NCBI RefSeq assembly: GCF_018143015.1
Contig: NC_054748.1
Span: 21,086,406-21,150,405 of the forward strand
From: Lytechinus variegatus
Taxonomy: Eukaryota > Echinodermata > Echinoidea > Temnopleuroida > Toxopneustidae
DNA: 64,000 nucleotides
Direction: 5' to 3'
Below the pieces are notes generated by a model. The model was given only the letters and a program-made list of their open reading frames with translations, was not told the origin of the DNA and searched no databases. Shown in pieces: positions 6,674-63,762 of the stretch. Both the position numbers and the translations under genes were made by a program. Each line of letters starts with the position of its first letter. The stretch's first letter is position 1.

Positions 6674-6820
6674 GAGAAATTGCATCACCAAATGACCGAC
6701 AGTCGTTACACGCAGATATTAGAGAGCACAGTCATGGAATACATAGTGAAAGTGAAAATCAGTCTTATGATGAACAGACAGAAGCCGTTTCCTTGGAACT
6801 TCACCCTTGATTGGGACTAA
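6674..6820 (+). pseudogene. Tandem copy of the sulfotransferase C-terminal coding sequence
   Basis: This stretch repeats the last part of the preceding gene (6485-6640) about 180 bp downstream, in the same orientation. It reads EKLHHQ-MTDSRYTQILEST and on to the same ending NRQKPFPWNFTLDW plus stop; relative to the original it lacks three codons (RVY). Over the 129 nt from each ATG I count 19 differences by eye, 13 of them at third codon positions, so the reading frame seems to have been kept under selection for a time. The frame is open only from 6674. An AG at 6673-6674 would give a phase compatible with the gene's other introns, so this could be an alternative last exon, although its pyrimidine tract is weak. 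Otherwise it is a partial-duplication relic. Confidence 0.7.
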
Positions 6821-19400: not shown

Positions 19401-22400
19401 CTGGGCTAGATGAGGTTGTTCAAGCCAGAACAATTAAAACTTTGAAGATCTAGTTGTCAGGCTGAAACTTTGATATCTGTTTTATCTCCCTATTTCCAGT
19501 CTAAATCTATAACATTGTTCCTACGAAGGGCAAGATCTCTAACCAACTTTTCACTTTTTTTTATCAGGAATAGAGAATGGCAGACAGAAGGTGCTGTTGT
19601 TGTTTTGGATGTGTTGATAGCCTTCGGGATGAAAAAAACCAGAGGGTTGATTGGGCAGATGTGATCATGTGATCGATGAGTCGTGGTGGTGATGAGGAAG
19701 GTTGAGGATGGTGGTGTTGAGGAGACAAAGCCTGAAATAAGTGGCAGCAAAAACGGTATTATGAAGTCAGTCGGAGACCAACAGGGCTCAGAAACTTGAG
19801 TTGAATTCAAACTTCTTGAGCTGGAGAAAGATGCATTTTAAAAACAACCCCCACTTCAAGGGGTGTAACATAAAAATCTACCGTAATTGTTGGAAATTAC
19901 TTGCAAGTGATTTTTAGACTGCTTCTTCTAACATAGAGTACTGACTCTCTATGACCAATCGTTTGCAATTGAGTTAAAATTGAAATTGATTGCAGTTATT
20001 TCTTGCAAATAATGAAGCAAATTCAAAATAAGTTCCTGAAAGAAATCAAATGAGAATATCTACATCCCAACTAACGAAAATAAAATAGATAAACAAGAGG
20101 AATGCTTCTGGAAGTCTCGTCTGCATTACAAGATTCAATACAGTGCAGCAGTGCTGACTTTGAAAATAACTATTGAATAATTATTCACAAAAAATACCAT
20201 CCATACCTGTATGATAATAAAAATATTATGTTCATTGACCGTAAATGACCTCGAGCATGTACGACTCATGCAAAATGATACGTGATACTCGATTACCCAT
20301 TTGTTTCACGAACTATAAACATATATCATGATGGCAATTCAACAAATACCCCCAACGTGGCCAAAGTTCACTGACCTTATATGACCTTTGACCCCAGGGT
20401 GACCAGATTTCACAAAATGAAATACGGGACAATCGACAAAATATGATCAACAAAGAAGGCTACACAGTGTTAGACTTGTGAAAAAAAATATAAAGAATTG
20501 GAAGGGAGGGTGAACGAAAGCCGAATGGAGGAGAGAAAAAAAAGACGAAAGAAAAGAGATGAATTGAGAAGAAAGAAAAAATGAACTTAGGGGAAATGAA
20601 GAAAAAAAAATTTAAAAAAAAAGAAAATTAGAATAAAAGACGGATGAAAGAAAGAATAAAAGAGAAAAAAAGGTTTCCATCATTCTTTGAATTGAATATA
20701 GAAAGAAAGGAAGAGAAGTTAGATAAATGTGTGAATTCAAAGACAAAATAAAGGAGAGAAAAACAGTAAGAAAAAAAGATCAAGGAAAGAAAAATAAAGG
20801 AAAGTCATGATTCCTTCATTCTTTTAAAGTAAGAAACAAAGAAAGAAGTAAAACAAGAAGGAAGGAGGGAAATAAGGGAAAAGAATAAACGAAAAATAAA
20901 ATAAAGAATGAAAGAAAATTAGGAAAGAGAGGGAGGAAAGATGAAGGAGAGAATGAAAAAAAAATAATGGAAGGAGAGAAAGAACGAAAAGAAAAAGGAG
21001 AGAGAGGGAGAAGCTAGGAAGCAAAGAAAAGTTTAAGGAAAACAAATAAGGATATAAAAATGAAATTTAATAAAGAAGGCAGGTAAAAAAGACGGATAGA
21101 AAGAAAAATGGTCAGAGAGAGAGAAAAGGATCAGGAAATAAAGATAGATGGAACAAAAAGGGCAAACAGGAAGGGTAGAAAAGAAAGAAAAGATCAAACA
21201 AAAACAATCCAATCATTTAACAAACAAGTGGAATGCCTCTGGCCGTCTCACCTGCATCACGCGGTTCAATATAGCAGCAGTGCTGACTTTGAATACTACT
21301 CTAACTCGCACAAGATGTTCAGTGATACATGGTTACTCTTATGTCCACTTTTTATGAACTAGACCAATAAACTTACAGAGATATGGTTATTCACCAAAAA
21401 AACCCAACATGGCCAAAGTTCATTGACCTTACATGACCTTTGACCTTGATCATGTGACCTGAAACTCAAACAGGATATTCAGTGATACTTGATTACTCTT
21501 ATGTACAAGTTTCATGAATCAGATCCATAAACTTTCAAAGTTATGATGGTAATTCAACAGATACACCCAATTCGGCCAAAGTTCATTGACCTTTGACCTT
21601 GGTCATGTGACCTGAAACGTGCACAGGATGTTCAGTGATACTTGATTACTCTAATGTCCAAGTTTAATGAACTAGACCAATAAACTATCAAAGTTATGAT
21701 GGTAATTCAACAGATACCCCCGATTCGGCCAAAGTTCATTGACCCTAAATGACCTTTGACCTTAATCATGAGACCTGAAACTTGCACAAAATTTTCAGTG
21801 ATGCTTGATTACTATTATGTCCAAGTTTCATGAATCAGATCCATAAACTTTCAAAGTTATGATGGGAATTCAACAGATATCCCCAATTCGGCCAAAGTTC
21901 ATTGACCCTAAATGACCTTTGACCTTGGTCATGTGACGTGAAACTCATGCAGGATGTTCAGTGATACTTGATTAACCTTATGTCCAAGTTTCATGAACTA
22001 GGTCCATATATTTTCTAAGTTATGATGACATTTCAAAAACTTAACCACAGGTTAAGATTTCGATGTTGATTCCTCCAACATGGTCTAAGTTCATTGACCC
22101 TAAATGACCTTTGACCTTGGTCATGTGACATGAAACTCTAATAGGATGTTCAGTAATACTTGATTAACCTTATGGCCAAGTTTCATGAACTAGGTCCATA
22201 TACTTTCTAAGTTATGATGTCATTTCAAAAACTTAACCTCAGGTTAAGATTTGATGTTGATGCCGCCGCCGCCGTCGCCGCCGCCGTCGGAAAAGCGGCG
22301 CCTATAGTCTCACTTTGCTTCGCAGGTGAGACAAAAATCATGATATTTGGTGTTTTTTAGTATATTTAAAACAAAATTAAAAAATGTTTCAGAAATGAAT

Positions 22401-36011: not shown

Positions 36012-39000
36012 CTATAGTCCTTCCCAAACTATATTCTCTCTCAGGTTCGCTACGTTCTGGGCGACCGCCTTATCGATGGACCTCTGCGAACACTCGCGGA
36101 ACTGCGGGTGCCACCACTGCAGGACGTCCACTTTCAAGACCGGATCTAGGACGACCATGATGACGCTGGACTTGACGCAAGAACCCCTGCGGTCTTTCCG
36201 GCCAAACTCCAACCTGACCTTATGGTGGCGCATGTTGGCGCTGACGCTCACCGAAGCCTTCAGAAGCTGAAGACCCATGATCATCCCGGACGGCACGTCC
36301 TGGAAGCTTTCACAATGGACTCTGAGGATACACTCCCTGCGATTGTCATTAGCAAAGATGTCTCTGTCGAAGCTATTGCCTTTATGCAGCACAGCGCCCT
36401 CTTTGCTGCACAAACGGAGCTTCATAAAGTGCGTAAAATGGTGCCCCATCCTTCCGTTGGACCAAGTATAAAGGCAAGTATAATCTTTGATGGCTTCGGG
36501 TGAGGCGTGGCCTTCTCCGACAGGGCAGGGCTTGTTGAGTGAGAGTCTGTAGGGCTCATGCAGGAAGTAGAGGGCACGGATCACGAAGGCACAAAGGCCA
36601 CGGGTACGCTCTATCCCCTCCGGTTGAAGATATGGTGGAAGAACAGTACTGGGGTTGAGGTATCTGGAAAAATATGAAAGCAAATTAGAACATGCAACAA
36701 ACAATATTAAATAGCTAAGGTGAATAATACAGTATTGCAATATTGGACGGTGAGGTTTGCAGTTAGACCATGTAAGTTAGTCCTGAAAAGGACTGTCAAT
36801 TTATTATCTCTTTAAAGAACATTTAAATAGTATTTACCCTTATATCTAATTACAATGGAAACATTGGTTGTGATTTTCTGCTGTGCTCTGTTATGGTAGT
36901 GGCTATAATGGAAAAGTTACCATAGTTGTAACTAAGATTTGAGATTTAGATTTTACAAAATTATTTTTCATGACAATATTTACAATTTTATACCAGTACA
37001 AATAATATAGTTTCATAAAAATAATGACATCATTTGCAACATTGCAAAGTATTTGTATAATTTATTTACAGAAGTAACTAGTACAAGACTTAAGACAAAC
37101 AAAAGAAAACTCCTTTGCTCTTACAAAACAGGTCCCAGTTCTCTGACAGCTCCCCAACAGGGCAAGTCTGTACTGACTGAGGGAATAGTCCCATACAAAA
37201 TAATCCCAGTACATTCTTCCAAAGAAATATTCCCCTGGAGCAAAAATCTGGGCCGCGTCTTACAAAGAGTTACAATTGATCCAATCAATCCTAACTCTAT
37301 GGAAATCCATCAACGTCATAATTTTTTTACAGAAAATTTGCAAAATGTCCTTTGTAAACAAAGGAGAACAAACCATATTGTCAAGAAATCAAAGAAATTA
37401 TGGATATACATTCATATCTAGAATTTTTTGATCAAACATGCATTTGATATGTTGACTTTGCTGGCTTTCCATTGTTGCCATTGATCGGATCAATCACAAC
37501 TATTTGTAAGACAGGCCCCAGGTCACCTACCTGAAATACAATTTCTTCCAGAATGAAACTGTCCTCGTAATACTGTACGCATCTTTGCACAGACATGAGA
37601 ATGTAGCGATGTCTTCAGGTCTAACATAATCAGCAAGAATGTACCACAGGTCTATCGGGTACACCCTTGTGTCCTCCTGGACGGGTTCTAACGTTGCTTT
37701 GCCCTTCTTTTTAGAACCTGTTGGAAAACAGAGATGATGAAAGTTATTATTACTGTGCGAGTCCCAAAAAAATAACTCCTCACATATCCCCATTTTAAGG
37801 AAAAAATATGTCATGAACACATAATCATTACATATGGTTGGAAAGAGTATCTTCTCCCAAATAATTTCATACCATAATTATGTGGTATGTCTTCACGCTT
37901 GGACAATCAGTAGGTATTCTTTGCAGGGATGCAAATTTTGACTTGCGCCAACTTAAGGCATGACTGCAATGAATAAATCCAGATGCCAATGTCACAATCA
38001 TACATGAGTTACTGAAAATATTTGCAAATCCCTTTTCAATGAAATTATTTTGAAAATTGACACTAAAAAGTGTTTAATAAACAATTATAATGAAAACTAT
38101 TGAAAAGGTGTTTTAAAATGGATTTTAATACAAGTGTTGTAGCATTATGATGTCATTGACATCTGGATTCATTCATTGCAGTCATGCCTTACTTTGGCAC
38201 AAATCAAAATCTACATCACTGCAAAAAAATACATCCCGATCATCCAAGCATTAACACATACCACATAAATATGGTATCAAACTATTTGGAAGAAGATACT
38301 CTTTCAGGCCCTACATAATCAAATAGTTAAGTGTTCACTGCAAAAAATACATCCTGATCATCCAAGCATTAACACATACCACATAAATATGGTATCAAAT
38401 TATTTGGAAGAAGATACTCTTTTACACTTTTTACACAGGATTTTCTTAGCCCCGGACTATCGCTAACCCCGTACTATCCTTAACCCCGTACTATTTTTTT
38501 TTCCTTTTCACACATGCCAAATTGTTATTGCTAACCCCGGATAAGGAATGCTTGCTTTTCACACACGAAACTCGCTAACCCCGGACTAGTGGTTTTTGTC
38601 GATCATTCATAGTACAAGTACTTCACTCGTATACTTTTTACACAGGCTAAAATTTCCTTAACCCTGTACTATAGGTGGGGCTAAATTGCCATTTAGCCCC
38701 ACCTATAGTACGGGGTTAAGCTTAGCCCACTTTCGTTTTACACTAGCGATCTTAACCCCGTACTATCGCTCTTAGCACCGCAATTGCTGGGATAACCCTG
38801 CTTTTTTGCAGGGCCAAATAATCCCGTACTAAAGGTGGGGTTAGCCCACTTTGCAAAAATGCTGTGTAAAACGAAAGTGGGCTAAGCTTAACCCCGTACT
38901 ATAGGTGGGGCTAAATGGCAATTTAGCCCCACCTATAGTACGGGGTTAAGGAAATTTTAGCCTGTGTAAAAAGGGTATTACAGGCCCTACATAATTAAAT

Positions 39001-42000
39001 AGTTATGCATTCATGACATAAAAAAAAAATTGAGATGAAATGAGTCATTCGGATCAGATCATGTCACAAGTTTTCTATTATTCTTGCTACTGAGCAAATA
39101 AAAGATACAAGAAAACCTAACAGACCACCTCTTAGGGCAAGCCTAGCAAATGCATTTGGAGAGCATTTCATGGAGAATTTTGTCAGTGACTTTCAATGAC
39201 TAATTCATTCTCAGGCAATCAGAAGCAGGGATTTCCAGAAGCTTATAACATCTGTCAGTGAAAATCACTAGCAAATATCTTCATGAAACGCTCCTCTGGA
39301 ATTCAACATCACCTTTCCGTGATTTCTTCCTGGTGGTCTTGTCTCCTTCTTCATTCTCATCATCAAACTCTTGGTGAGTTGAATAGCTGGCATTGGTCTC
39401 AAAATCAGAGGGATCCTTTTCATCCCAATCTCGCTCGTCCCAAGCAAGATCTTCCTCCTTCTCCTTCTTCTCCATTTTATCTTCCACCTTTGAATCTGCT
39501 TCCTGGGTCATCAGTTTGCTCTTGACCAGAGATGCTGTCTCTTCCTTCATGTCGGCTATTTGAACTGCGATAGAGAATATAATGATACCAGCAATTACAA
39601 CTATAATGTACTACTACTACTAATAATAATACTAATAATTATAAGAAAAGCATTTGTATAGCGCTATTAATCTCTATATGTTCTAGTCTGAAGCACACTA
39701 TTATTTCTTATACTTTAGCTCAAGCTGCCATTTCTAGCTTTTTCTCAATTCATGCAAGCAATTAAATCCTGCATTGAACCCCTTTACATGTATTTCATCT
39801 GGGCTGAGTGCAGCGTGTTCGAATCCCACCGCTAAATGGGTACCCGGTAGGATGTGAAAGTCATTGTAGCTTGTCCAGTACTGTGTGCGCCTCACCGGCG
39901 ACTGACTGGAATACTCCCCAGGGAGTGGAGGATGTGCACACATTGTGTGCGGGAATGACTGATTGAATCCGATGACCGGGGTAATAATATATCTGTGAAG
40001 CGCTTAGACACGTCGTTCCGATGTATTAAGCGCTATATAAAAGCGGATTATTATTATTATTATTATTACAACGTTGCCAAATTTCTTGCTGAATAAAACA
40101 TGCAATGGCTGGGATTTGATTCCACGACCCTCTCATTGACAGAGTCAGAACCACTAGACCACAATGCCCCCACAAATAACTGATTCAACATCACCAATCA
40201 ATTTCTATTTCTGAACAAGGAAATTAATTTTAAGAAGTCATTTTTATGCTGATAAAATAATAGTAGCTTATTTATCCTACTGAGTTAAGAATATTGTAGG
40301 CCCATAATCTGGGTCTTTGTCTTTATAGGTAACAACAGTACATCTTTCCCTGCTTGCAATCAACAACACTTTATTAAATGTGAACTAGCAATTATCCATA
40401 CAAAAAACCCAGAATAAGTAACAGTATGAAATATTGTTCATTGGGAAACCTTACCCGTATCATACTTCATCCGAAAAGATTTCTTGCTCACTCTCAACGG
40501 CAACCTTGCTGCAGGATTATCAGCAAAATCACCAAGCTTGAAATCTGCAAAGAATATTGATAAGATAAAAATTAAAATAATACGAACAAAAAACAAATGT
40601 CAATGACTTTATGAGGCATAATTTGATAAGCAATCTGGCATTCTCGGTTGCATTACGTGATTCAAAATAGCAGCAGTGCTGACTTTCAAAACAGCTAATC
40701 AACTTGCTACATGAAAGTAGATGAAAGCATTGTATAAAGCCTATCATAATACTTTTCCCAAGTTTTCTGTTTTTTTTCTTCTCGGTATTGGCGTAGTGTC
40801 ATTATACGACAAAGGGTTAAGTGTTATTGTACGACAAAGGGTTAAGTGCATATGTGCCAAATACATGATCCAATGAATGAAACATATTTTGCATCTACAA
40901 CCAAAACAACAAGACAATGCCTCTAACAATTGAATGAAACAAGCACAAAGAAACACAAAATCTTGAAATGTCAAATTTTAGACAGACTTCTTTTCATAAA
41001 AGAAGAAAACAAGGCCAAGAGGGGTCTGTTTTTTTGTAAAAAAAAACCCAAAAACTTTATTATGGGCTTAGATAAGTCTTAAATTATGGCAAAAACCATT
41101 TAGACATTTAAAACAACAGCATTGGGACAGAGAGAAATCAAGTATTTTTGTCCTGTCTTGTATTCTTGTAAATGCTTACAATCAAAGTGTTGATCATTAT
41201 GGCAACTGAAGATAGACTTGATTAATCACACTGACGATTCTTGCACAGTGAACGTGCTGTGACTGTTGATTTTAAAATGTCAGAAAATATTACTTCATCC
41301 CAGAATAAATGTTTGCTGAAAATTGGTCAAAGTATGACTCAACAAACTATTCATTGACAATGTTGAATTCAATTTTTATTTAAATAAGAAAATAATTCAA
41401 AAATTGAGTCTCAGTTTGACGACTTATTAACAAAGCACCAAAGGTAAACTGAAGTTCTGAACCTTAAGTTGAATTTTAAATAGAGAGTAGATTAATAAAT
41501 TTGCTAAAATAATATTAATTTATTGATAAAGTAACTTGTTCTTGACATGATGAACCAACTAAGACAAAGTCAGAATAATTTGAGTCACAATAAGTGAAGA
41601 ACACAACCTGAATAAAGAAAGTGAATAGAAGTCTACTGCAGCACAGATGGTCACTGCAGCTGCACTCAGTCAGTCTCACCCTCACTCTCACTCACTCAGC
41701 TTTGCCGCTGTGAGCTGTGCTAGCCATGCTAGCTCCTCAGGTCAATTTACATCGAGGACGAGGCCGGGTACTGACTACCCTCGCATACATGGCAGACTAC
41801 ATCTAGAACTAGAAGCAGAGTTGACTGTGTAAATATCCTAAAAAATATTTTCCAAAATCTGTCGCAATAAGACAAAGGTCACAATCGATCAGGGGTTAGC
41901 ATTTCGCAATAGTCACCGCGCCGCACGCAAACGTCATCGCAAGCGTAACATATACGGAAACTCCGCTACAACTGCCGGAAAACTCCGGGCGTCCGTTTTT

Positions 42001-49589: not shown

Positions 49590-52500
49590 ATGCTTCGCTT
49601 GTCTTCTATTTGCAGGCGAGCTGGAGCTCAAGCTCCAGTAACTGCCTTTGCCAGTAGGGCCTTGATCGGTGAATCGACGCCAGAGTTCCGGGGAAGAGCG
49701 AGCCCATGCAACCGCCCCTTTCTTCAGAACACCTCGTCATTCCATACACACTTCGTTTTGAGCCGTCCTGTTCCAGATTTGCCAGACTTTAATACCAGTG
49801 TGAACATCCATGAACACAAGCTGAACAGACCTGTTAAGCCAACAAAAAACACAAATGCACAGACACAGAAGAAAAAAGAACGGGCGAAATTGGTGAGATA
49901 ATCCATTGTCAAATATCCATTGAAAATGAATTACATTGCCTAGCCTTTTAATTTAATTATTGGTTGGAACTTGGAGTAGGTTTTGGACACTCATTCAATG
50001 AACAAGGTTATAATATAATGGTTTTGAATGAAGTTAGGCCTACTCCGCAAATTCATTTTAATTTATGTTACATCTATATAGTACAACTCCAATTTCCCAA
50101 ATAAAAAGTTCTTCTACTTAAATATATTCTACAATGTATTATACATACATGATGTAAGCATTATTAATTATTATTATTATAGTATTATTAGGTGATCTGT
50201 CAATTGACAGATCACCTCTTATGTTTCTATGAATTTTCTTTTTTATTTATTTCTTTATTCTTTTTATTTATTTTTCTTTTTCCACCCTTTTCTTGTTCCA
50301 CCAAAATCAGCAAAACTATTCAATCAATTTTCATCAAAATATTATCAATTATGGACAGTTATCATACAATGTCACAATAGGCCAAAAATGTGCAAAAACA
50401 TGCTTTTACAAAATTCTATATAACTCTTCAGATAGTCCGTTGACCCCCAAATTTTCTTTTATATTCGGATAGAGTAGGACTTGTAGATGTGATTTCATGT
50501 CACATTTGACAATAAATTTTATCATAACGTCATCAAATTGGCGTCAAAACTAAAATTTTCAATTTTTGTTTTATTACGTTTCAATAATTTTGCAAATATG
50601 ACTATAACTCCGTAATCATTGGTCGCTTTTCGCCCGGTTTTCGACATATTGTAGTTGGATATTCTTCCATATTATGTTACATTTTTATCATCTTGAGCAG
50701 GAGATCATCATGAATATTAGCAATGTATAGAAGTATATTATTATGATAAAACTTTCACTTGAAAAATTCAATTTGAGGTTATATTTTATCGTTGCCTTGC
50801 AAGTGTATGGCAGTTACTATGGTCTGATGGTTAGTGCATCTGCCTTGCAATGCGAGGTCCCTGGATCGACATCCATCAGCATCTATTTTTTCATTTATTA
50901 AATTTTGTCTCATTTTGCATGTAACCCCTATAAGCCGGTTTGGGGTTCCATTTTGCGCATGATAAGAAGTTCATTCGTATAATTCAGTGACATGATTGTT
51001 TTATATTTAATGAGATATTAGCAACAACCTTGATGTCTTGGTTATTCTTTTGAATTGTATGTTTCATTACATCCATAAAAACAACAACGCGTGCACTAGC
51101 AACTGGTATTTGAAACTTGGCTACGTATTGTTATAAGCACACGCTAACGCATTCCAAGAAGAAATGCAACAAATGCCTCCGTCAGTGTTCATTGCTTTGC
51201 TATTCTATTCACCAGGTCTAAGCAATTTCTTCATCTTGCTATGCAAGACATGCTTGCATAATATCTCGCAATGAAATCTACATATCGTCATGTAAGAAAT
51301 TAAATGTCATAACTGCTCATGAGGTAACAAAATACTGGTCTATGCATACTGATTTAAATTTTTCAAAACTGGATTTTAGATTCTTGCTTTCGTCAACACT
51401 ATGCTCACTATTTTGTGTTATCGCTTGCTAAATTGGAATTGGCATTCTTTACAAAAACAAGATCTTTTCATACCACCTTTTATTTCAATGTCTTTCAAAA
51501 GTATTCAGCATGTCCTTTCATTAATAAAACTGGGCTTATTCTCATGAAGCTCATATTGATTTGCATTAACATGGTGATCATGAGAAAAAAAAATAGATCG
51601 TGATCGTGATCATGAGATTCACAGACAGATCACCTAATTCGTCCTCAAGAAGAATTAAAATTCTAGTTTTTATTAATATTAATTTTATTATTACTATTGG
51701 ATAGTATTATTAGTATTAATCTTTTCTTCACAGGAATATAAGGAAAGACCTAAACAAATCACTTTTCAGGTAAAAATCACAAACTGCAGGTTCCCAAACT
51801 ACATCTGCTAAAATTTCACAATATCCAAACCATAACAGTTTTAGGAAGTCGTATATTATTTTTAGTAACTTGATTAACTTGGGTGGGGGGGGGGGGGTAG
51901 TACCAGTATCTTAGAGAATATAGGCCTACCATGTCCATGATGTTATTGTTGGGTACTTAATAGTTTTTAATTAAACATATTTAATAGCCTATCTCAATCT
52001 TATTCAAAATGAAGAAGCTTTGTAAACAAGACCTATTGGCATGATAATGAAAAATAATGAAGGCAGCACATGTTTCGGATAACATCGTAAATCTCAACGT
52101 GAGGGGTATGAGTCCCACCCATGCCGAAACGTGCACTATAACGTTGTGTGTTAGCATGCCTCACCACTGTATTCAGTGCAGGTGTGAATGCAGTTGTTAA
52201 ACACTCCGTCCATCGGAAAGGATGCAAATGTTAGTCCAGTGTATAGGAGAGTCACAACCTATGCACGTTAAAACCAATACACTATTCGTCCAAGAGTAGG
52301 GTGTTCACCCGGTGTATTGCACCTGCCGGTCCCGGCACACTTCATGTCAAGTACCCGATGCGTTTATGCCAAGGAGGGCCCAGCATCATATACATCCAGA
52401 TCCAATACACAGTAAAAACCTCACCTGGGTTTAGTACAGCCTAGTGTGGATAAATCCCTCGCTGAAGAAAGTAATGCAAAGTTGAGTCCCCATGACCTGC

Positions 52501-55500
52501 TGGTTTACAGGCGAGAGTCAGAACCACTAGACCACAACACTTCCAAATTGATTGAATCAATAGACTGAACACTCAAGGTGGTTTGCAAATTCAGTGACGA
52601 GAAGCATTTGTGATTTGATGATCTATTATTCATACTCCTTGTTTTCATCACACCATCTAAAGAGTAAGAAAATTTTCATGATCATCAGTTTAGCAGTAGC
52701 CAGAATATAGTCAAAGTCTCAGAAGCAAGCAGTACTTCAAACAATTGTAAAATTTGGTCTATGCCATGTCTATCTTTCTAAATATTTGAACTAAATAGGA
52801 TGCTATGTCAGGAAAGATCATGCAACATCTTCATCAATTTTATTTTGTTGTTCCTGTAGGGCTCCCTTATCCCTGAGACTCTGAAGGAGATGGAGAACGA
52901 TGAAGAATTCAAGATCACTGCCCAGAAACTCAAGCAAATGGGACAGGCCAAGCTGACGAGGGAAGAGAGAAAGAAGAGGCAGAGGGCGCTAGACAACCTG
53001 GGCGTTCCAAACTTCAGAGATTTCCTCAAACAGTATCATCATGAAGAAACAGGAGGTAGATTTGTATACAGCAAAAGAACCCCCCCCTCCTTCGGAAAAT
53101 AGTTGGGTTACATTTGCTTATAGTTTATTCCTGTGCCGCATTTTAGTTAATGGCTAACTTGAGTATATCATGGAAAATGTTTTTATGCAACATGCCACAT
53201 AAATTTTTTATCATACATATATTCCCATACAGGTTACCCATAAACCAGGGTTCTTAATTAGTTTTGTTATCAGAAATCTGTACTATGCTAATGCCCATCG
53301 ACCGAACAAGTAGCATGGGATAAAGGGGGCCAACTAAAGGGCATCTGTTGAGAGTTGAGGGGGTGGGGCCCTAAATCATTTATACAAATTTATTTTCATT
53401 TAGAAAAAATGTCTTGGATATATGCCACTTTGAAAGGCCCGATGTGAGCTGCTTATCAAGAACATTTTTGCTCTATTTTTATGAAGAGGTGTTGTGGCTT
53501 AGTGGATAGGTTTACGGTCATTGAACCAAAAAGGTGCGGAGTTCAAATCCAACTGCAGCACTTGCATCCTTTGGCAAGGTGTTTATCTGCATTTGTCATT
53601 CTCTACCAGATATAGTAAATGGATACCCGGGCAGGAAACGCTTAGAAACATTAAGTATCAAGCACCGTACTGTATAAATGTAATCATGATTAAATATTAG
53701 TAGGAAGTAGTTCTCTGAATTCTCAAGTGTCTAATCAGGGTAGCTGTGTTAAAGCTACAGAAATAGTATGTTGCAATATAAATGGCTATATATTTTTATC
53801 TCAACAGAGAAGTGCTCATCCCTCCTGCGAAAGATCGACATTGAGATCCTGCAATTGAACATCGGTCTTTACTGTAACCAGGCCTGCAACCACTGCCACG
53901 TTGAATCTTCTCCTCGGCGGAAGGAGATGATGGATCGAGAGACGGCAGAGAAGTGCATTGACATCCTGGAAAAGAGTCCCAACGTTCATACACTTGATCT
54001 TACAGGTTGGTGGGTTGTATTAAAAGACTTTTAATCGAAACTTGATTTCATTTGATAATCCACCGGCAGTACGTGTAGCTGCTGTTGTTGTTTTTGTTTT
54101 TTAATACTTTATAGTGTGTTTTCTTTCTCTTATGGCATTGTATTTTGTTTTGATGATATCAATTGTACTGATCTTTGCTATTGTTAAAAGAAAAAAAATT
54201 GTCACAACTGTATTGCAATAAATAATATTATTAACCGTATCAGACATCTGAGCAGGGCAACTTTGAAACATTGTTGCCTGCTTAACACTGGGATCGAATG
54301 GCCGGTCAATAAAATTCCAATTGTTTATCCACGGGCCCAATTTATTGCCCGCTCAAGAAAGTCAATGAGAAAATGCGTGGAAATGTGGCGGGCAATAAAA
54401 GGCAGCTCTAACATCCGGGTATTCTACGCGTTTTGTACGCGTCCTTGAACCGCGCAGTGCTATACGTCATAATGGTAATGAAGTTGAGACAACGCTGGAT
54501 ACTGCGTCCCTAGGCCAGGGATACGTCACAATGGTAAAGTTCAGAAGCCCAGTCTGCTCAACATGAGAAACTAGATTCTCATTCTAAAAATTTAAAATAT
54601 CTAAATTTTAACGATTTGGCTCTAGATGTCTGATTTGGTTAATAATAGCAATATTGACTGGCCTGGGGGCGAAAGGACATATATCGCCCTCACTAAATTG
54701 ATATCACCCTCGTCTACGACTCGGGCGATATAAATCTAGTTTGGGCGATATATGTCGTATCGCCCCGAGGCCAGTCAATATTGCTTTAATAAATAAAGTG
54801 AATATAAATGGAAGGATGGATACATGGATGGACAGATGGTGCATTCGTATCCAACCCCTATGTGTGGCACCTTACTTTGCCTGTCCAAAGCTTTAGTAAA
54901 TCCTTACAAACATGACTATAGTATTGCAATTCATTACTAAACTATATGAATGTGTATACCCTAGAAAAAATTATGGTGTGGCTTGTGTAGATTTTGGTAC
55001 GGGCAGCGAAATTAAGCAGAAGAACGGTAACACAAATGTCATTAGTCTATTTATATTTATTGCTATGCAAGCTACAAGAATCATAAGAACCATTTATATT
55101 ACATTTTTCAAAAATACAAAAATACTTAAATAATATTATTTTACATATTTTCTTAGGTTTCATTATCCATAAAAATAGTAAAATTGAACAAACGAAAAAA
55201 ATCAACTCCAAAAAAGTTGTCTGGGAGAAAATGGTCACAAAATCTGAGCGAAGTGGACCTTCCTAATAGCAACACTGCTGTGTGTTGCTGCCCTCTACGT
55301 CCGTTGGTCTAAGATAAGACTGTCAGATAAATAGACCATCTGCTTTTAATGCCAAGTGCATACAAAACCACACTGTAGCCTTGGATTGAGTCAAACCTGC
55401 CTGTTAAAATCATATTCATCCTTTACCTTTCAGGTGGGGCTCCAGAGCTGTGTTCTCAGTTTCGTTACCTGGCGAGCGAGGGTCGGAGGCTGGGTCGTAA

Positions 55501-58500
55501 GGTCATCGACCGCTGCAACTTGACCGCCTTACTGGAGCCGGGTCAAGAGGACACCCCAGAGTTCATGGCCGAGCTCGGGGTCACAGTCATAGCATCACTT
55601 CCATGTTACAGGTGTATATTATTGTTAAATTGCCACTTGTTATACACCCTCTTGGTCTACCCCCCACTCAGTGTTATTTAGGGTACGTCTATGCTCGTTC
55701 CCTCCCTTTGAAAGCACCCCCCTATCAAAGGTCTGCCAAAATTTCAGAACCCCCCTTTCGAGGGATTTTTCGCTGTCTTTTTCTGCCTTGGAGACCCCTC
55801 TAAATCTGGAACACTGCTCACTGTACCTCCTATCTCAGGTGAGCTCTCATTCCAACAAAACGTCCGTACTAGGCCCGTTTTGAAAGTCCATTTTTGATGC
55901 ACGTGTACACGGCGTGTTTTTCGGTCGTGTACACGTTGTAAACAATGTGAGAGCGAGTTCTGTTTTCATGTCGACACGGACCCGCATCAATATGTCATAA
56001 AAAGGGGTCTATATAGCCTAAGTCACGGTTTTAAAGCTTACCTGAGAAGTTTGAAGTATCAATCCACAAAAATTGGTGCAAATTAAAAGTTTACTCGGCT
56101 TAGCAGCGCATTAAATTAATAAAGAATGCAAAAGAAAATCAGTGCAGGGCCCTAGCTATCGCCGACGCTCGGTGGATGCGCATTTTGTATACTGTACCGT
56201 ACATGCATGCACAGATCGCTGCAGAATAAGTGTAACTGAAGTTATCGATTAATTTTCATTATTATGTTGCCAATTTGAAGAGCGTTTGTTTGTAGGCTTG
56301 TGTGCGAGCGTATAACACGTAAGTTGTAGCGATGATCGCTATCGCAATTGATGATTCTCAAATTGACTCTGAGTGTGATTGAGCAACGCTTTCGAGCTTT
56401 TGAGACCGGAGCAGACCCATTTCGTGCCGATTTCGTGGTACAAAAACGTGAGTCTCCAGAAAGAATGGATTGAATTGGCAATTTTGGAAGTGAACTCACT
56501 CTGGATTAATTGAAATATGTTGACATATTAGTAATTAAAACGTGCAGTGTCTGAGAACTAAGATTTAATGTGAGGCTGTGAGCTTGTTTATGCAGATGCT
56601 ACCGTGTACACGGTGATGGAATTTAGTACACGTGCACTGACTTGACCGTGCGTGTACACGTGTACCCGAAACGGGCCTAGTCCGTCCTTTACTTTTCAAA
56701 AATCAAAATGAAATAATCCTGAATTCAGGATTATTCGGGCTCATTCGAATGAGCTTTGAAAACTAGCAGGAATTTCAGGAATTTGATCCCAGGATTTGAT
56801 CAATTTTTTTATGTTATTCAAATTATTTTATAATCCCCTTTTAAAATTTCTCAGGAGTCCAAAGAGAGAGATAAAAAACAGCCCCTTTTTAAAGAAATCT
56901 CCGGGTGAAAATACAAATACACCCCCTTTTTTACAATTTGCGGGCCGGACTTGTCCCGCGAAAAGTACCCCTTTACCGGACATTTTGGAACACGCATGCG
57001 GTCCTTCTCACCCGGAGTAGGGGGGGGCAGGCCCAAAACCACCAATAAGTCACCAGGGAAGGTTCTCTGTTAATAGCCAAAATAGTAGATTGGTTTTCAA
57101 AAGGCAAAAATTCAAAACCTTGCTTGTCTGAAGGAGCATTTCTTCATCTTTATACTGTAAAAATGTAGATTTGGAAAGTTGAATAGAAAACAAGATACAA
57201 AAGTTTCTTTGATGCAGATTTTTGCAGACAGCTTGGAAGTTTAATTGAAATTGCAGTGTGCACATCTCATGCTTGAGTGAACAGAAACTTCAAATGTTGT
57301 TTTTTCCTTTATTCTCTGAAGCTCTGCACTTTGTTTTATCTGCATTCAATCAAGCATTTGAGTAAGTTATTATTTTTCAAGTTTGGCAAATCATATATCA
57401 TTTTATTAAAGCTTGGGGTAACTGGTCATGCTTGTTCAAACTCAATCAAAATCTCAACATTTATTTTGGGAGACTTATAATTGGTTTTGTGGTGACTGGT
57501 CATATTTGATCTCCTTCCAGATGGTCAGGGCCCCATCTTACAAAGAGTTGCGATTGATCCAATCAATCGCAACTATGGAAAGCCAGCAAAGTCAACATAT
57601 AAAATGCATGTTTGTTCAAAAAAAATTCTATTGATTTCTTGACAGTTTGGTGTGATCTCCTATGTTTACAAAGGACATTTTGCAAATTTCCTGTAGAAAA
57701 GATTATGACACTGATGGATTTCCATACAGTTACGATTAATTGGATCAATCGTAACTCTTGGTACGACGGGGCCCCAGATCATCTACTAACCATTTCGTCC
57801 AATTCCCACTCAGGCTATATGCATTTCTTTGAGGTCTACTACCACTTATTCTATATATGTTTTATAGGTCCACACCCACTTTCTGTTTGGCATCATCTCA
57901 GATGTTCAGATCACATTTGATCTACAACCAAGATCGTCTACTAACCATTGTCTTATTCGCCTTTAGGCCATACACATGTCAAATAACCTACTTGGTCTAA
58001 CAAACCTTATGGGGTGTTGCAAGAAACTTGCGATCAATCGCATGTCTATTTTTAGTCCCTAAATCAATCATATGTCTTGCAGTTAATTGCGAATTAGTGA
58101 TTGATTGCTAATTTGCTCCTTGAAACAAGAAGTGTAATCTGATATGCTATAGCTATCGTTGATCTGTCAGTTGCAATTGATTGCAACTATTTTCTTACAA
58201 CACCCCCTAAGTCTATATTCTTTATAGGTCTACATCCACTTTCAATACTTTCCGTTTGGTCTCATACCAGATGATCTGCAAATAGTCTAATTTCTGAAAG
58301 TTTCTGTGAAGGTTTCTGAAGGTACTAACCACTGTCTAATTCGCAATTGGGCCATTCACATTTGAAAAAATCCATTCGGACTAACACCACTCTATGGTTT
58401 ATAGATGAATTGTTTACGTACCAAATTTTAATTTTACAAAGTGCGAAAAAGATAATACATGAATAAACCCATCTTCGTAACTACCTTGGAAACTAATATT

Positions 58501-61500
58501 ATGATATGTGGGGCAATGCTGGGCCTGTTGCAAAAAAGTTACCATTATGGGAACGCTGCCATCCAATAACTTGTATGGAATCCTTGATTCTGATTGGCTG
58601 TCAATCATCGTTTCCATGGTAATTACCGTTGGATGGCAAAGTTACTATAATGGTCTAATGTTAGTGACTCTTGTCTAGAATCAGAGGGATGAGGGTTTGA
58701 TTCCAGGCCATGGCGTACTGTCCTTCAGCAAGAAATTCACCCACATTGTGCTGCACTCAACCCAGGTGAGGTTACTAGGTACCTGGTAGGAATTTATTCC
58801 TTGAAATGCTGCGCGCGTCAGAGCTGCTCTGCTAAAGCCAGGGTAATTATGCTGCGTTACTGTAGAGCGCTTAGAGACTTCTGATAAAGTAAGTGTTAAG
58901 CGCTATATAAGCAAGTATAATTATTATGATTGACTGCTGAGCCCCATTATGACTTTATAGAACGGGGGCGTTTCATGAAATGACTCGTCAGACGTTTTAT
59001 CCGACAAGTCCCATTTTATCCGACTGCAGTTACTATAGGAACAGTGCCTCTCGGCCAATCAAAATCATGGAAAGATGTCAGGGGAGCGTTTCATCAATAT
59101 TTTCATCCGACAAGTTGTCCGGGCAAGTTGTCAGATCTGACATCTTTCCATGATATTGATTGGCTGTTCCTATGTAACTGTTGGATAAAATAAGACTTGT
59201 CGGATAAAACGTCAGACAAGTCCTTTCATGAAACCCCCCCCCCCAGGTCTCAGGGTCCTGTATCACAAAGGTTAGCGATTAATTGTATGCTTCATTTTCA
59301 CTATTGATTATATACAGTGCATCCCAGAATAAACGAAACCGAGATTTAGCGACCATTTATCATAACTTAATCATAAATAGAATAGATAAATGACCTACCA
59401 ATTTAAAGCTTAGAATCTCTTCTTTCATCTGATATTACTTAGCTTATTTCTTATTCACGCATGAGTGAGCAAAAACAATTTGAAGAAAGGATACCAAAAA
59501 CTCATTTGGCGAGGGGTATCTGGGTTTCAAAAAGAAAACCACATTTCTGAAAAGTTCAATGTCTGCTCTTTAATTTGGTACCTCAATTACAGAAAATGGT
59601 CAAGAAATAAAAAAGTTCTGGTCATTTGAAATTTATGATTAAGTAATGATAAATGATCGCTAAATCTCGGTTTTGTTTTTTCTGGGACGCACTGTATTGT
59701 ACAATGCAATCAATCGTAGAAAAAAGCTTTGTGTTACGGGCCCCTGATGCTTTTTTTTTTTTTTTTTCAAGAATACTTATTTCTAATTGATATTTTTTGC
59801 AGTGCCAAGAATGTCAACCTACAGAGGGGTAGTCAAGTCTTCCAACGCAGCGTTGCAGCATTACAAACTCTGAATGAGCTTGGCTATGGGCAACCCGGGA
59901 GCGGTCTGGAATTACATCTGGTTTATAACCCTCTAGGTAACGATAGACTTAAAGGAAAATGAAAAATTTGGAATAAGTAGGCTTGTGTCGAAACAGAAAA
60001 AAATCAAAGAAACAGATCAACGAAAGTTTGAGAAAAATCGGACAAACAATGAGAAAGTTATGAGCATTTGAATATTTCAATCACTAATGCTATGGAGATC
60101 CTCCCATTGGCAATGCGACCAGGATGTGTGATGTCGCATGTGAACAACTTTCCCTTTGATGGACTATAAAATACCCCCAAAATGTCTCTTTTTGCTTATT
60201 TCTGATGGTGATACAAACTCTTATCCATGATGTATTCTTTCAATAACTGTATTACATGCCCTTCTATAGAAAGAACACATGATCTACTGATAGATGTGAT
60301 AATAGAGGCAATTTAAGTGAAATATATACTAGAGTAATGGGGAAATTTGTCCACATGGGACCTCACATATCTTTGTTGCATTGCCAATTTGAGGATCTCC
60401 ATAGCATTAGTGATCACAATATTCAAATGCTCATAACCTTCTCATTCTTTGTCTGATTAAACTCAAACTTTTGTTGATCTGTTTCTTTGATTTTTCTGTT
60501 TTCACACAAGCTATCTTGTTCTAAACGTTTCATTCTCCTTAATGTGGCGCAGGATTGATCCTGTACGTGGTGGGCAAAAGAAAGGATCACCAGTAAACAT
60601 TGCACCATTGTTGAACACCTGGGCACAGGTGTATTTAAACTGAGTTAAAAAGAAACCGATCAAACTTTACAATGGCACTACACAAATTCCACACAGTCAA
60701 AATGAATAATGTTTTTACACAGGCTAGCCTCAATAATCTTTTCTAAGCACATGTCAATAATTGAGATCACAGAGAGGCTATAGCCCCTCACATCAAATGC
60801 TTTCAGAATCAAAAGTCACAAAAGGGCAAAAGAAAGACAAATGAAAATGAGCTGGGATCAAACAAAATTTCCAGTTTACTTCATATGTCCTTCATGATAA
60901 TGTTTTAGTGATTGGCTCAGTCACAAAGAAGCTACAGGAAATTAACATCAGAATTTTGAATGACAGTTTCTTTGGAACCTTTTCTTTCTATTATGAATAT
61001 TACTGAGCTCAATTCGCTCAAAATGGCATTCGCGAGAGATTTCAATTCTGACAGAATTGAAGAGAGTTTGAAATATGCTGCCCAAAAGCTCAGAATAGAT
61101 GACTTTAAGGACCTGCAGGCTTCAGCGATATGTTTAGTACTTAATGGAGAGGATTGTTTTGTAAGTTTACCGACTGGATTCTGAAAAATTGCAATAATTA
61201 TGCCAGGCTCTGCCATTGTCGTTTGACTTTCTACGTTCGAGACTGAGAGCAGTGAGACAGAAGCCGCCAGTGCCAGCCGCAGGGAAGTGTGTCACGCATA
61301 TGATAACCATATATGCATATTGATGACCTTACCAGTGATGATAGTGTTGTGTAGTATGTATTTAACTTCCTGTTATCCTTTCAGTCATTCACCCTCACTT
61401 GTTTACAAACTCTCCCAATGTTATCTAAGAATCCCAAACCCCCAATACCATTTAACTGCTAAGCCTTGACCATTTAAGACCAACCCTCAGTGACGTCAGC

Positions 61501-63762
61501 TAACTTCATGGAAGAAGTATGACTCACACTCCAGCCCGGGCTCCAGCCCTAGTCACTTGCACAGAGCATCACCACACCCCAGATACCAGAGAGTTTGATA
61601 GACAGTTAATTGTAGACCAATCAGATCAAGTTTAGATCACTCCCACCTTAAATTGTTACACCCCAAAACAAATGATATAAATAAGACTTCTTGATTATTA
61701 GAAGAGAATACCAACCCTAGAATACTAGACCCACACTCATCCAGATAGACTAACTGACTTCAAGACTTAGACGTCCATCCAATATTATTTTAACTTCACT
61801 CCGAATCTCAATCTGATACTTCAAATTGTGAATTGTCAACTGCAAGTGATGATTAAATACTTTGTGATTTGAACTGTATAACTTTCTGCAAAGTTTCCTC
61901 ATTACGCTTCCCTTCAATAATCACCGATCCGATCCCAACACAACACGACAATAGGCGCTCGGGCTGTGCCCTCGTCCATCAGTCTGCTTCGCACGACCAG
62001 TAACTTGCCCACTATTGCCCTGCGCATATCAGATAGGCTAGGTTGTGTGTGGATTGCATGCTGGTGTATAATCATAATTTAGTCTACCCACAGTGATATC
62101 AAGAATCTTTCAATCTTGTTCTTAAATTCAGAACCTTTTCTTTTTATTTCATACAGGTGGTTTCCTCCCACCGCCTCAGGGTCCGTTGGAGCAGAAGTAC
62201 AAAGAGGAGTTGGATGAAGCCTTCGGTATCAAGTTCAATAACCTCTTCACAATCACCAATGTCCCGGTCAAAAGGTTTACAGATTTCCTGGTTAGAAGGT
62301 AATCTTCTTTCTCATTCTTTTTCTTCTTTGCTTTTATTCATCTATCTTTTTATCTCTTTATTGATTGAATAATCGACTTGATTGTTTCATTCATTCGTTC
62401 TTTCGTTCCTTTATTTGTCGTTCATTCATTCATTTATCCATTCATTTATTCATTTAATTATGTAGTTAATAAATTACTTTGTTTCTTTATTAGTTAGTAC
62501 TTCTGAGTCGCAAGACCGCTAGAGAAAGCCTTCTCCCATAGACTTTATACATGTGACTTGGGTGGAGGCTGAGGCCAAGGCCTCGGGGTCTGCCTCGAGT
62601 GCATCCCTATTAGAGATATTGCTCATATATTTGAAGTGCTTTATAAAAGTATATTTTCAATACTATTTTTTGTGATTTTGATGATCATGATCATAGGTGT
62701 GTTCTTTTGTCTTCAGGAACGAGTTGGAAGACTACATGAACATGCTGGTCCGTAACTTCAACCCGGCGGCCGTTGAAGGTCTGATGTGCAGGAACTACAT
62801 CAACGTTGGTTGGGATGGACGTATCTTTGACTGTGATCTCAACCAGCAGTTGGACCTGTCAAGCAGAAGACCTCTAAATATCCAATCAGGTAAAATCAAC
62901 AACAACAACAGATCTCAGGAAAATTAATGTTTGACTGAGGTTCTACCAGGTGTTGCGTACACTGCTGTCGACCAGTCTTGCAGAAGTAGTGCAACTTGGG
63001 AGGGACATCACAATAGGGGTCACCTTGCAAGCAAGGATTGTGAAATAAATAAATGCAGTCTTTATAAGATGGGGACAACATTAAACTTGATATCATGCAA
63101 CCTAGATTAGGTTATCTTATTTTATATTGAATCTATGCAAGATGTTCCTTTTCTTTGAGATAAGTTATGTTATTCTGCTTGCTTTTGGTAAAATAATGTT
63201 ATACTGTATAATGATAATTAAATATTTGAAGATCTTCTTTAATTCTTTGTTATACATTTGCTTAATGAATATGATTTGTATATTCTGTTTACCATTTGGG
63301 TAATATAATAGTGTTCTAAATATTTGACTGTCTTGTAATTACTTTCTTGTTATGCACATGTAGTTGCTATATGAATATTACTACAACTACTAATTATAAG
63401 GATGATATAAGCAATAATGATAATGATGATGATGACAATATGGCTTGTATTTGAACCTGCAGCATTCTGATTCAAACTCCCAAGACTAATCCACTGCACC
63501 ACAATGCTTCCCATATGATATTTATGTAAATTTCAAGACTATACAACTTAATATACACTTGATAAGTATCTTCTCTATAATTGTTATTATCTTCCACATC
63601 ATAGATACTTCCGGACATGCCATTCCAAGTGGACTGAAAGGACCCAGCATTTGGGATATTACATCAGCTACTGACTTTGCCGACCTCGGAATCGTCACTG
63701 ACAACCACTGTTTCGGCTGCACGGCTGGTAGCGGTTCATCTTGCCAGGGGGCCACGGTTTAA
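49590..63762 (+). CDS. ArsS-like radical SAM protein (9 exons, 505 aa)
   Basis: Member of the radical SAM family containing bacterial ArsS, which attaches the 5'-deoxyadenosyl group of SAM to trivalent dimethylarsenic in arsenosugar synthesis. Exons are 49590-49892, 51734-51769, 52860-53055, 53808-54005, 55434-55611, 59803-59936, 62157-62298, 62717-62889 and 63605-63762. They sum to 1518 nt, with phases 0,0,1,1,2,1,2,1 matching at every junction. Residues 1-40 are rich in R, A and S with no acid before residue 28, like a mitochondrial presequence. Residues 114-178 form a charged, probably helical module. The [4Fe-4S] motif is YCNQACNHCH (C201, C205, C208), followed by DLTGGAPEL, VIASLPCY, LVYNPLG and GWDGRIFDCDLNQ. 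Conserved cysteines C420, C435, C489, C492 and C500 (HCFGCTAGSGSSCQG) may bind a second cluster. All expected motifs are intact. The substrate in an animal is unproven, and the arsenic link comes only from family membership. Confidence 0.9.
50815..50890 (+). mobile_element. tRNA-like SINE fragment
   Basis: 'actatggtctgatggttagt' with a degenerate box B 'gtccctggatcgacatcc'. Only the head is present. ArsS-like intron 1. Confidence 0.5.
52428..52545 (-). mobile_element. SINE fragment, main family
   Basis: Minus-strand head GTTGTGGTCTAGTGGTTCTG and body through 'aacccaggtgagg'. ArsS-like intron 2, about 320 bp before exon 3. Confidence 0.6.
53486..53693 (+). mobile_element. tRNA-derived SINE
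   Basis: Head GTTGTGGCTTAGTGGATAGG with box B-like GGAGTTCAAATCC, body 'atcctttggcaaggtgttta' and 'tggatacccgggcaggaa', tail 'aagcaccgtactgtataaat'. ArsS-like intron 3. Confidence 0.7.
54647..54785. mobile_element. 139-bp palindromic MITE
   Basis: AGCAATATTGACTGGCCTGG and 'aggacatatatcgccct' at the left are mirrored by 'gggcgatatatgtcgtatcg' and GGCCAGTCAATATTGCT at the right, arms about 45 bp. ArsS-like intron 4. Confidence 0.75.
55872..56677. mobile_element. Element with subterminal GTGTACACG palindromes (806 bp)
   Basis: The ends GGCCCGTTTTG and CGAAACGGGCC are flanked by TA on both sides. GTGTACACG or close variants lie at about 55902, 55926, 56601, 56627 and 56652, concentrated near the two ends. 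No coding sequence. ArsS-like intron 5. Confidence 0.6.
57528..57775. mobile_element. MITE with GGGCCCC...TTACAAAGAGTT ends
   Basis: Left 'gggccccatcttacaaagag' plus 'ttgcgattgatccaatcaat'; right 'ttggatcaatcgtaactctt' plus GTACGACGGGGCCCC. The interior is shared with 37250-37519. Confidence 0.7.
58011..58206. mobile_element. Intact copy of MITE X (196 bp)
   Basis: The ends GGGGTGTTGCAAGAAACTTG and 'tattttcttacaacacccc' are inverted repeats, with 'gcgatcaatcgc' and 'caattgattgc' words inside. It serves as the reference for the interrupted copy at 43401-45754. Confidence 0.75.
58648..58927 (+). mobile_element. tRNA-derived SINE, main family
   Basis: Head ATGGTCTAATGTTAGTGAC with box B-like GGGTTTGATTCC, body GCACTCAACCCAGGTGAGG, tail 'gagcgcttagagacttctga' and 'gcgctatataagc'. 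It follows directly on a MITE fragment at 58528-58655. Confidence 0.75.
58970..59240. mobile_element. Two GCGTTTCATGAAA-family MITEs in opposite orientation
   Basis: The first (58970-59080) runs GGGGGCGTTTCATGAAATG to 'catggaaagatgtca', truncated. The second (59081-59240) runs GGGGAGCGTTTCATCAATAT to CCTTTCATGAAACCCC, inverted. Copies of 11397-11556. Confidence 0.65.
59253..59744. mobile_element. GGGCCCCGTAACAC-group MITE interrupted by a TA-type MITE
   Basis: Left 'gggtcctgtatcacaaaggt' and right 'aaagctttgtgttacgggcc' are inverted ends. The middle is the element 59315-59694. It ends about 60 bp before ArsS-like exon 6. Confidence 0.65.
59315..59694. mobile_element. Mariner-type MITE (380 bp)
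   Basis: The ends CAGTGCATCCCAGAATAAAC and 'tctgggacgcactg' carry about 65-bp inverted repeats ('cgagatttagcgaccattta' and its complement) with TA on each side. No coding sequence. Confidence 0.8.
59953..60538. mobile_element. TTAA-type MITE beside the ArsS-like exon 6 donor
   Basis: TTAA at 59949-59952 and 60539-60542 flanks AGGAAAATGAAAAATTTGG... and ...CGTTTCATTCTCC. The arms include 'gaaacagatcaacgaaagtt' and its complement. Its left TSD starts only 13 nt into intron 6. Confidence 0.8.
60960..61190 (+). pseudogene. Fragment resembling a RecQ-type helicase N-terminus
   Basis: The plus-strand frame reads LKYAAQKLRIDDFKDLQASA, then ICLVLNGEDCFVSLPTGF and a stop. This resembles the start of RecQ-family helicases, where motif I would continue GKS after LPTGF. 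No other helicase motif follows, so it is a truncated piece, probably brought in by a mobile element or retrocopy. It lies in ArsS-like intron 6 on the same strand. Confidence 0.55.
61289..61950 (+). repeat. Possible isolated LTR (fossil, Ty3/Gypsy-like)
   Basis: The segment begins TGTCACGCATATG and ends ACACGACA, with a TATA-like GATATAAATAAG near 61674 and a polyadenylation-like ATTAAA near 61853. No internal retroelement genes are adjacent, and target duplications are not evident, so the borders and the identity are tentative. Confidence 0.25.
62505..62605 (-). repeat. Interspersed repeat shared with 35850-35975
   Basis: 'tcccatagactttatacatg' followed by 'gaggccaaggcctcgg' is the complement of the plus-strand block at 35850-35975. 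ArsS-like intron 7. Confidence 0.45.
63440..63512 (-). mobile_element. SINE head fragment
   Basis: The minus strand reads ATTGTGGTGCAGTGGATTAG with a box B-like GAGTTTGAATC. It lies about 95 bp before the last ArsS-like exon. Confidence 0.5.

What the first reader, a model, noticed from the sequence alone, without database searches (positions are those of the whole stretch)
49590..63762. Intact ArsS-type radical SAM gene in an animal genome
Nine exons with fully consistent phases encode a 505-aa protein keeping the CxxxCxxC cluster motif, DLTGGAPEL, GWDG...CD and the Cys-rich C-terminus. Bacterial ArsS makes the adenosylated arsenical from which arsenosugars derive, and marine animals are rich in organoarsenicals usually attributed to algae in the diet. 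A spliced copy with a probable mitochondrial presequence raises the possibility that the animal makes or remodels such compounds. The arsenic role is inference from family membership.
Basis: partly seen in the sequence, partly recalled or inferred. Interest (0 to 1): 0.75.

Follow-up and report, generated by a model that had tools for sequence, protein, structure and literature searches.

The report
Arsenic-sugar enzyme gene in an animal
A gene split by introns, in what looks like an animal's own DNA, encodes an intact-looking relative of the bacterial enzyme that joins arsenic to adenosine on the way to arsenosugars, so some animals might make these compounds themselves and not only eat them; the enzyme's activity has not been shown.

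Summary
The window carries a spliced, frame-consistent gene at 49590-63762 (+). The protein passes the curated ArsS cut-off (TIGR04167, 401.8 against 300 bits). It keeps 79 of 83 columns that are at least 95% conserved in 85 bacterial relatives, including three radical-SAM and five C-terminal cysteines. It is at most 56% identical to the bacteria fetched, has seven GT-AG introns, and two introns carry repeats shared with the rest of the window, so it is not a bacterial contaminant. The tree resolves no donor. A mitochondrial presequence is not supported beyond charge. The arsenic role is inference: from published work on the cyanobacterial enzyme, seen second-hand, and from bacterial neighbourhoods (of 80 loci, ArsM-like genes near 26, arsenosugar-type glycosyltransferases near 34, methylthioadenosine-phosphorylase relatives near 12). 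The last suggests a route an animal could finish: AS3MT, ArsS, MTAP. 'Animal' itself rests on recalled gene and repeat likenesses.

The parts
49590..49892 (+). exon 1: start codon and basic N-terminus without bacterial match (residues 1-101)
   Evidence: open frame, donor ATTG|gtgaga, phase 0; no bacterial homology, 0 of 86 queries
52860..53055 (+). exon 2: Lys/Arg/Glu-rich linker running into the region just before the radical-SAM domain
   Evidence: tag|GGC acceptor and GGAG|gtag donor, phase consistent; 0 of 86 bacterial queries hit it; loosely aligned with the N-terminal linker of some bacterial members
53808..54005 (+). exon 3: LQLNIGLYCNQACNHCHVE with the CxxxCxxC cluster motif (Cys189, 193, 196), up to DLTG
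   Evidence: 85 of 86 bacterial queries hit it; no gap at the junction in the rows shown
55434..55611 (+). exon 4: GGAPEL ... RCNLT ... SLPCY, radical-SAM core
   Evidence: 85 of 86 bacterial queries; no gap at the junctions in the rows shown
59803..59936 (+). exon 5: QRG ... GYGQPGSGL ... LVYNPLG
   Evidence: 85 of 86 bacterial queries; no gap at the junctions in the rows shown
62157..62298 (+). exon 6: DUF3641 region, ... ITNVPVKRF ...
   Evidence: 85 of 86 bacterial queries; the DUF3641 match covers residues 340-491
62717..62889 (+). exon 7: MCRNYINVGWDGRIFDCDLNQ with Cys408 and Cys423
   Evidence: 86 of 86 bacterial queries
   Evidence: AG before, GT after, 36 nt; no bacterial query hits outside the eight exons
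63605..63762 (+). exon 8: DNHCFGCTAGSGSSCQGATV-stop with Cys477, 480, 488 (Cys488 codon TGC, not TGA)
   Evidence: 86 of 86 bacterial queries; codon

Best explanation
It is a working nuclear gene for an ArsS-type radical SAM enzyme with an auxiliary-cluster C-terminal domain. Shown: family membership, catalytic and C-terminal cysteines kept, spliced gene in host sequence. Inferred: Cys189/193/196 hold the SAM-cleaving [4Fe-4S] cluster; Cys408/423/477/480/488 hold an auxiliary cluster or the substrate arsenic; the enzyme makes a 5'-deoxyadenosyl radical from SAM and adds it to trivalent dimethylarsenic (product of the animal's AS3MT), giving an adenosylated dimethylarsenical. A phosphorylase such as MTAP could then swap adenine for phosphate, giving the arsenosugar ribose. 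Whether the animal does this to detoxify arsenic or uses the enzyme to remodel dietary arsenicals is open.
For: TIGR04167 401.8 bits over a cut-off of 300; DUF3641 164.3 over 24.9 and Radical_SAM 31.6 over 29.5. 79 of 83 strongly conserved columns kept, with all eight cysteines that are identical in 85 of 85 bacteria. The model of a 55%-identical bacterial relative (pLDDT 92) is closest in the PDB to SuiB, SkfB, EpeE, BlsE, DesII, MoaA and the like, several of them auxiliary-cluster enzymes by recall. Bacterial neighbourhoods, of 80 loci: ArsM-like 26, TIGR04282/4283-type glycosyltransferase 34, TVP38/FAD oxidoreductase 25, MTAP relatives 12, at least one of these 59. One locus, L015, reads arsS, arsM-like and two glycosyltransferase-like genes in a row. 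PMC8552651 passage: Synechocystis SsArsS acts with SsArsM in the first steps of arsenosugar synthesis. PMC12159101 passage: a radical SAM enzyme adenosylates arsenic. PMC5398495 passages: AS3MT homologues in animals from primates to cnidarians and sponges, with sea urchin, acorn worm and oyster in its species list.
Against: No transcript, protein or assay. 21 of 80 bacterial loci show none of the four neighbour types, and 14 of the 46 loci with both 6-kb flanks show none. The two ArsM-like neighbours scanned (L015, L012) fall below the curated arsenite-methyltransferase and arsenosugar-ArsM cut-offs, and both L015 glycosyltransferases fall below theirs. None of 12 bacterial neighbour proteins (ArsM, glycosyltransferases, MTAP, TVP38/FAD and others) has a match in the window at E<=0.01. 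PMC5398495 also reports no AS3MT in insects, arachnids, crustaceans, flatworms and roundworms, so the route would not hold in those. The family name covers proteins whose substrate was not tested.
Confidence: 0.52

Rival explanations
1. Same fold and family, other job: the animal enzyme adenosylates or otherwise modifies a different substrate (another metalloid or a thiol compound), and the arsenic name is carried over from the family.
For: 54 of 80 bacterial loci have no ArsM-like gene within the DNA held. The animal end branch, 1.4 changes per column, is the longest in the tree (median 0.52), which leaves room for a change of substrate.
Against: Conserved columns almost all kept; score well over an equivalog cut-off.
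Confidence: 0.35
2. Diet remodelling only: the enzyme acts on arsenicals or nucleosides taken from food or symbionts, and the MTAP genes beside bacterial arsS merely recycle 5'-deoxyadenosine or methylthioadenosine, by-products of SAM chemistry.
For: In 7 of 8 searched genomes the arsS-adjacent MTAP is the only match at E<=1e-20, as a housekeeping enzyme would be; bacteria metabolise MTA and 5'-deoxyadenosine by a common pathway (PMC10986504, start of abstract in the listing).
Against: Position looks non-random: in 8 of 80 loci an MTAP of at least 38% identity lies within about 0.85 kb of arsS, whereas 12 kb of a 4-Mb genome would give about 0.3% per genome (my estimate).
Confidence: 0.1
3. 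Contaminant, dead copy or assembly artefact.
For: No transcript evidence; eukaryotic relatives could not be searched.
Against: Seven GT-AG introns, introns 1 and 4 sharing repeats with the window upstream, at most 56% identity to bacteria fetched, conserved columns kept.
Confidence: 0.03

Closest known systems
ArsS (TIGR04167, rSAM_SeCys), studied in Synechocystis PCC 6803 (second-hand passages, PMC8552651 and PMC12159101; primary papers not seen)
   Same: Radical-SAM core, DUF3641 C-terminus, CxxxCxxC, DCDxNQ, HCxGCTAGxGSSC; about 44-56% identity to the near-full-length bacterial members fetched or listed
   Different: Nuclear, eight exons, about 166 N-terminal residues without bacterial match, a stretch before WDI longer than in the bacteria fetched; no arsM, glycosyltransferase or MTAP match in the window
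ArsL, arsinothricin radical SAM enzyme (PMC8552651, passages)
   Same: Radical SAM enzyme that makes a carbon-arsenic bond
   Different: Transfers a 3-amino-3-carboxypropyl group and likely has a single cluster, by that paper; not compared by sequence here
Radical SAM enzymes of known structure: SuiB, SkfB, EpeE, BlsE, MoaA
   Same: Overall fold of the bacterial ArsS model
   Different: 11-17% identity in those alignments, other substrates

Membership tests
ArsS (TIGR04167 equivalog) | Whole-protein score over the curated cut-off of 300 bits | tested here: met
   401.8 bits, residues 174-491, profile 3-302 of 303. Control: over the cut-off in 1 of 14 well-known genomes though all 14 give matches
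ArsS (TIGR04167 equivalog) | Radical-SAM CxxxCxxC | tested here: met
   Cys189, 193, 196, identical in 85 of 85 bacteria
ArsS (TIGR04167 equivalog) | C-terminal DUF3641 with conserved Cys; a GxxU form exists (PMC13188914 table passage) | tested here: met
   PF12345 164.3 bits; Cys408, 423, 477, 480, 488; Cys488 in GSSC has codon TGC
ArsS (TIGR04167 equivalog) | Adenosylates dimethylarsenite | not testable with these tools
   needs an assay
ArsS (TIGR04167 equivalog) | Genetic partner ArsM | tested here: inconclusive
   three bacterial ArsM or ArsM-like queries have no match in the window; the rest of the genome could not be searched
Mitochondrial protein | Amphipathic basic presequence | tested here: inconclusive
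   basic, first acidic residue at 28, but helical moment not above shuffles
Nuclear gene of an animal | Spliceosomal introns and host surroundings | tested here: met
   seven GT-AG introns; introns 1 and 4 share repeats with window 1-49000
Nuclear gene of an animal | Host is an animal | tested here: inconclusive
   F-box exon over cut-off, sulfotransferase-like exon under cut-off; likeness to TMEM183, WSCD sulfotransferases and echinoderm repeats is recalled

The most novel reading that the evidence does not exclude
Some animals make the arsenosugar core themselves: AS3MT gives dimethylarsenite, a horizontally acquired, domesticated ArsS adenosylates it, and the ordinary animal MTAP phosphorolyses the product to an arsenoribose phosphate. 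Part of the organoarsenic load of marine animals would then be their own product, not algal.
Probability: 0.3. Interest if true: 0.85.

Novelty: new member of a known kind. Interest (0 to 1): 0.6.

Why it matters
An animal ArsS would give one gene to knock out or assay, and so a direct test of that view. The MTAP gene next to some bacterial arsS genes also offers a candidate for a pathway step, loss of adenine from the adenosylated arsenical, using an enzyme that animals already have (recalled).

Tried and rejected
Ninth exon: found a candidate (62950-62985) but no support. Donor of the gene: a tree of 86 rows gives no supported sister; holding the animal with a Bdellovibrio-like group, a Bacteroidota/Planctomycetota/Nitrospirota group or a beta/gammaproteobacterial group is not rejected (p 0.67, 0.37, 0.12; groups were named after the tree was seen). 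A 100-aa stretch of the N-terminal region (residues 72-171) has no PDB sequence match at E<=1. Viral contigs: the first scan, with the animal protein, found no relative; the second, with an alignment, found one fragment, L086, dropped from the tree and the conservation count but kept among the 86 tblastn queries. Window: no Rfam match at gathering scores, no tRNA. Neighbour proteins: none of 12 in the window. Papers: ten searches ran; in the titles and abstract starts that they listed (for several only the top rows of many) I saw no animal ArsS; most subscription journals are not held, so this does not show that none is in print.

Full report
What is there. Reading the frames and joining the pieces at GT and AG gives eight exons, 1482 bases with the stop, 493 residues. 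All seven introns are GT-AG and the phases agree. The introns are 2967, 752, 1428, 4191, 2220, 418 and 715 bases. I see no reason to add it: between QLDL and WDI the eight-exon protein already has 26 residues where 81 of 85 bacterial rows have 7-13, three have 16-18 and one has 25.

Is it more than chance. All 86 bacterial proteins from the fetched loci (85 near full length and the fragment L086) were used as queries on the window. Exons 3-6 were hit by 85 each, exons 7 and 8 by 86, exons 1 and 2 by none; nothing else in the window was hit, and the reversed window gave nothing. At the junctions after exons 3, 4, 5 and 6 the animal row and the six bacterial rows shown have no gap; the junction after exon 7 falls in the longer stretch just described.

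What family. NCBIfam: ArsS, TIGR04167, 401.8 bits, cut-off 300, E 1.7e-120; the next best family has E 1.5e-7, and the other 24 of the 25 families shown (34 in all) are far under their cut-offs. Pfam: DUF3641 and Radical_SAM, both over cut-off. By sequence the best PDB match is weak, E 0.0023. As a control on the model, its cut-off is passed in 1 of 14 well-known genomes and in 5 of 5 genomes of fetched relatives. In the 85 bacterial rows 83 columns are at least 95% conserved; the animal keeps 79, a share of 95.2%, about that of the lowest bacterial row when each is left out in turn (80 of 84; median 98.8%). The four lost are V to A at 246, G to Q at 303, S to N at 413 and F to L at 425, animal numbering. 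Two cautions: the 80 genome loci are the best of 590 confirmed, from a pattern list that hit its limit, and the scan patterns were [LIV][YFH]DCD[FL]NQ and HC[YF]GCTAG, so conservation at those motifs among the bacteria is partly built in.

Is it the host's gene. The introns exclude a bacterial contig. Introns 1 and 4 hold stretches 74-93% identical to places between 11.4 and 43.5 kb of the window, so the gene sits among the host's own repeats. Exons have 50% GC, introns 37%. The host: an F-box exon over cut-off and a sulfotransferase-like exon under cut-off lie upstream. From memory they resemble animal TMEM183 and WSCD-type sulfotransferase genes, and the tandem repeats at 21.3-22.3 kb resemble repeats of echinoderms. 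None of that was tested; no eukaryotic collection was at hand.

Where it came from. Highest identity is 56% (Bdellovibrionales L006). In a tree of 86 rows (the animal and 85 bacterial rows, L086 left out) the animal lies among bacteria with an end branch of 1.4 and no supported sister; three placements are not rejected. An old transfer is the natural reading, but without other eukaryotes neither direction nor age can be shown. Of the partner enzyme AS3MT, one paper argues that animals got it from bacteria by horizontal transfer (PMC5398495, passages).

How it works. A bacterial relative, L006, folded with 45 other bacterial rows, gives a confident model (pLDDT 92). Its nearest solved structures are SuiB, SkfB, EpeE, BlsE, DesII, anSME, MoaA and PqqE, several of them radical SAM enzymes with SPASM or twitch auxiliary-cluster domains by my recall. 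So the five invariant C-terminal cysteines most likely hold an auxiliary cluster, or hold the arsenic; this is inference. Passages in PMC8552651 and PMC12159101 say that cyanobacterial ArsS acts with ArsM at the start of arsenosugar synthesis and that the adenosylation is a radical SAM reaction. The primary papers were not seen; one was looked up and is not held.

Bacterial neighbourhoods. By tblastn at 1e-10 within the DNA held (up to 6 kb each side), of 80 loci: ArsM-like 26, TIGR04282/TIGR04283-type glycosyltransferase 34, TVP38/FAD oxidoreductase 25, MTAP relatives 12, at least one of these 59; of the 46 loci with both flanks, 13 have ArsM-like, 19 the glycosyltransferases and 32 any. The named plasmid loci agree in part: arsM near arsS in Pseudanabaena, one annotated arsenosugar-type glycosyltransferase in Hymenobacter and in Thiodictyon, both kinds in Acinetobacter; the Cupriavidus record carries no annotation there. 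Scanned one by one, the Pseudanabaena ArsM passes the arsenosugar-ArsM cut-off, while the ArsM-like proteins of L015 and L012 and the two glycosyltransferases of L015 stay below theirs.

MTAP. The L009 protein passes the MTAP cut-off (278 against 274.85). Of the 12 MTAP relatives, nine are 38-100% identical to it (L009 itself included) and three are 29-30%, perhaps other nucleoside phosphorylases. Eight of the nine lie within about 0.85 kb of the arsS match, the ninth at 1.4 kb. In 8 genomes searched, 6 pass the cut-off; by position the arsS-adjacent gene is the best match in each of the 8 and in 7 the only one at 1e-20 (L010's genome is not held; positions matched by hand). Either it removes adenine from the adenosylated arsenical, or it recycles 5'-deoxyadenosine and methylthioadenosine. 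A search of the paper library for arsenosugar with these enzymes showed no paper on the link among the ten listed of 816. If the first is right, an animal with AS3MT (homologues in animals from primates to sponges, sea urchin in the species list, but none found in insects, crustaceans and some others; PMC5398495), ArsS and MTAP could reach an arsenoribose phosphate. None of these partners is found in the window by a tblastn with 12 bacterial queries.

Verdict. A real, intact-looking, spliced ArsS gene; the family call is strong, the arsenic function plausible, the animal's own synthesis of arsenosugars a testable idea and not a result.

Noticed in passing
L009:4411-5253, L010:6930-7760, L018:3008-3847, L028:6960-7802, L053:5063-5908, L014:5164-5799, L060:2512-3183, L075:4949-5779: Methylthioadenosine phosphorylase relatives lie next to bacterial arsS, within about 0.85 kb in these eight loci; a candidate for the adenine-removing step of arsenosugar synthesis.
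   Followed up: partly
window 6218-6637 and about 6704-6817: The last exon of a sulfotransferase-like gene is followed by a second, similar copy of its C-terminal end (RYTQILESTVMEYIV...NRQKPFPWNFTLDWD), a tandem duplication.
   Followed up: no
window 36015-39610, minus strand: F-box exon at 37530-37877 (PF00646 over cut-off) and neighbouring open stretches that recall the animal TMEM183 gene.
   Followed up: no
window 21303-22261: Tandem repeats of 163, 192 and 316 bases with TTTGACCTT and TTCATGAACTAG, recalled as echinoderm-like.
   Followed up: no
L015:2679-9360: Bdellovibrionales cluster in one direction: TVP38/FAD oxidoreductase, permease-like gene, arsS, arsM-like, two arsenosugar-type glycosyltransferases.
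   Followed up: partly
L046, L047, L042, L025, L031 N-termini: Several bacterial ArsS carry an N-terminal linker that aligns loosely, with large gaps, with the animal residues before the radical-SAM domain.
   Followed up: no
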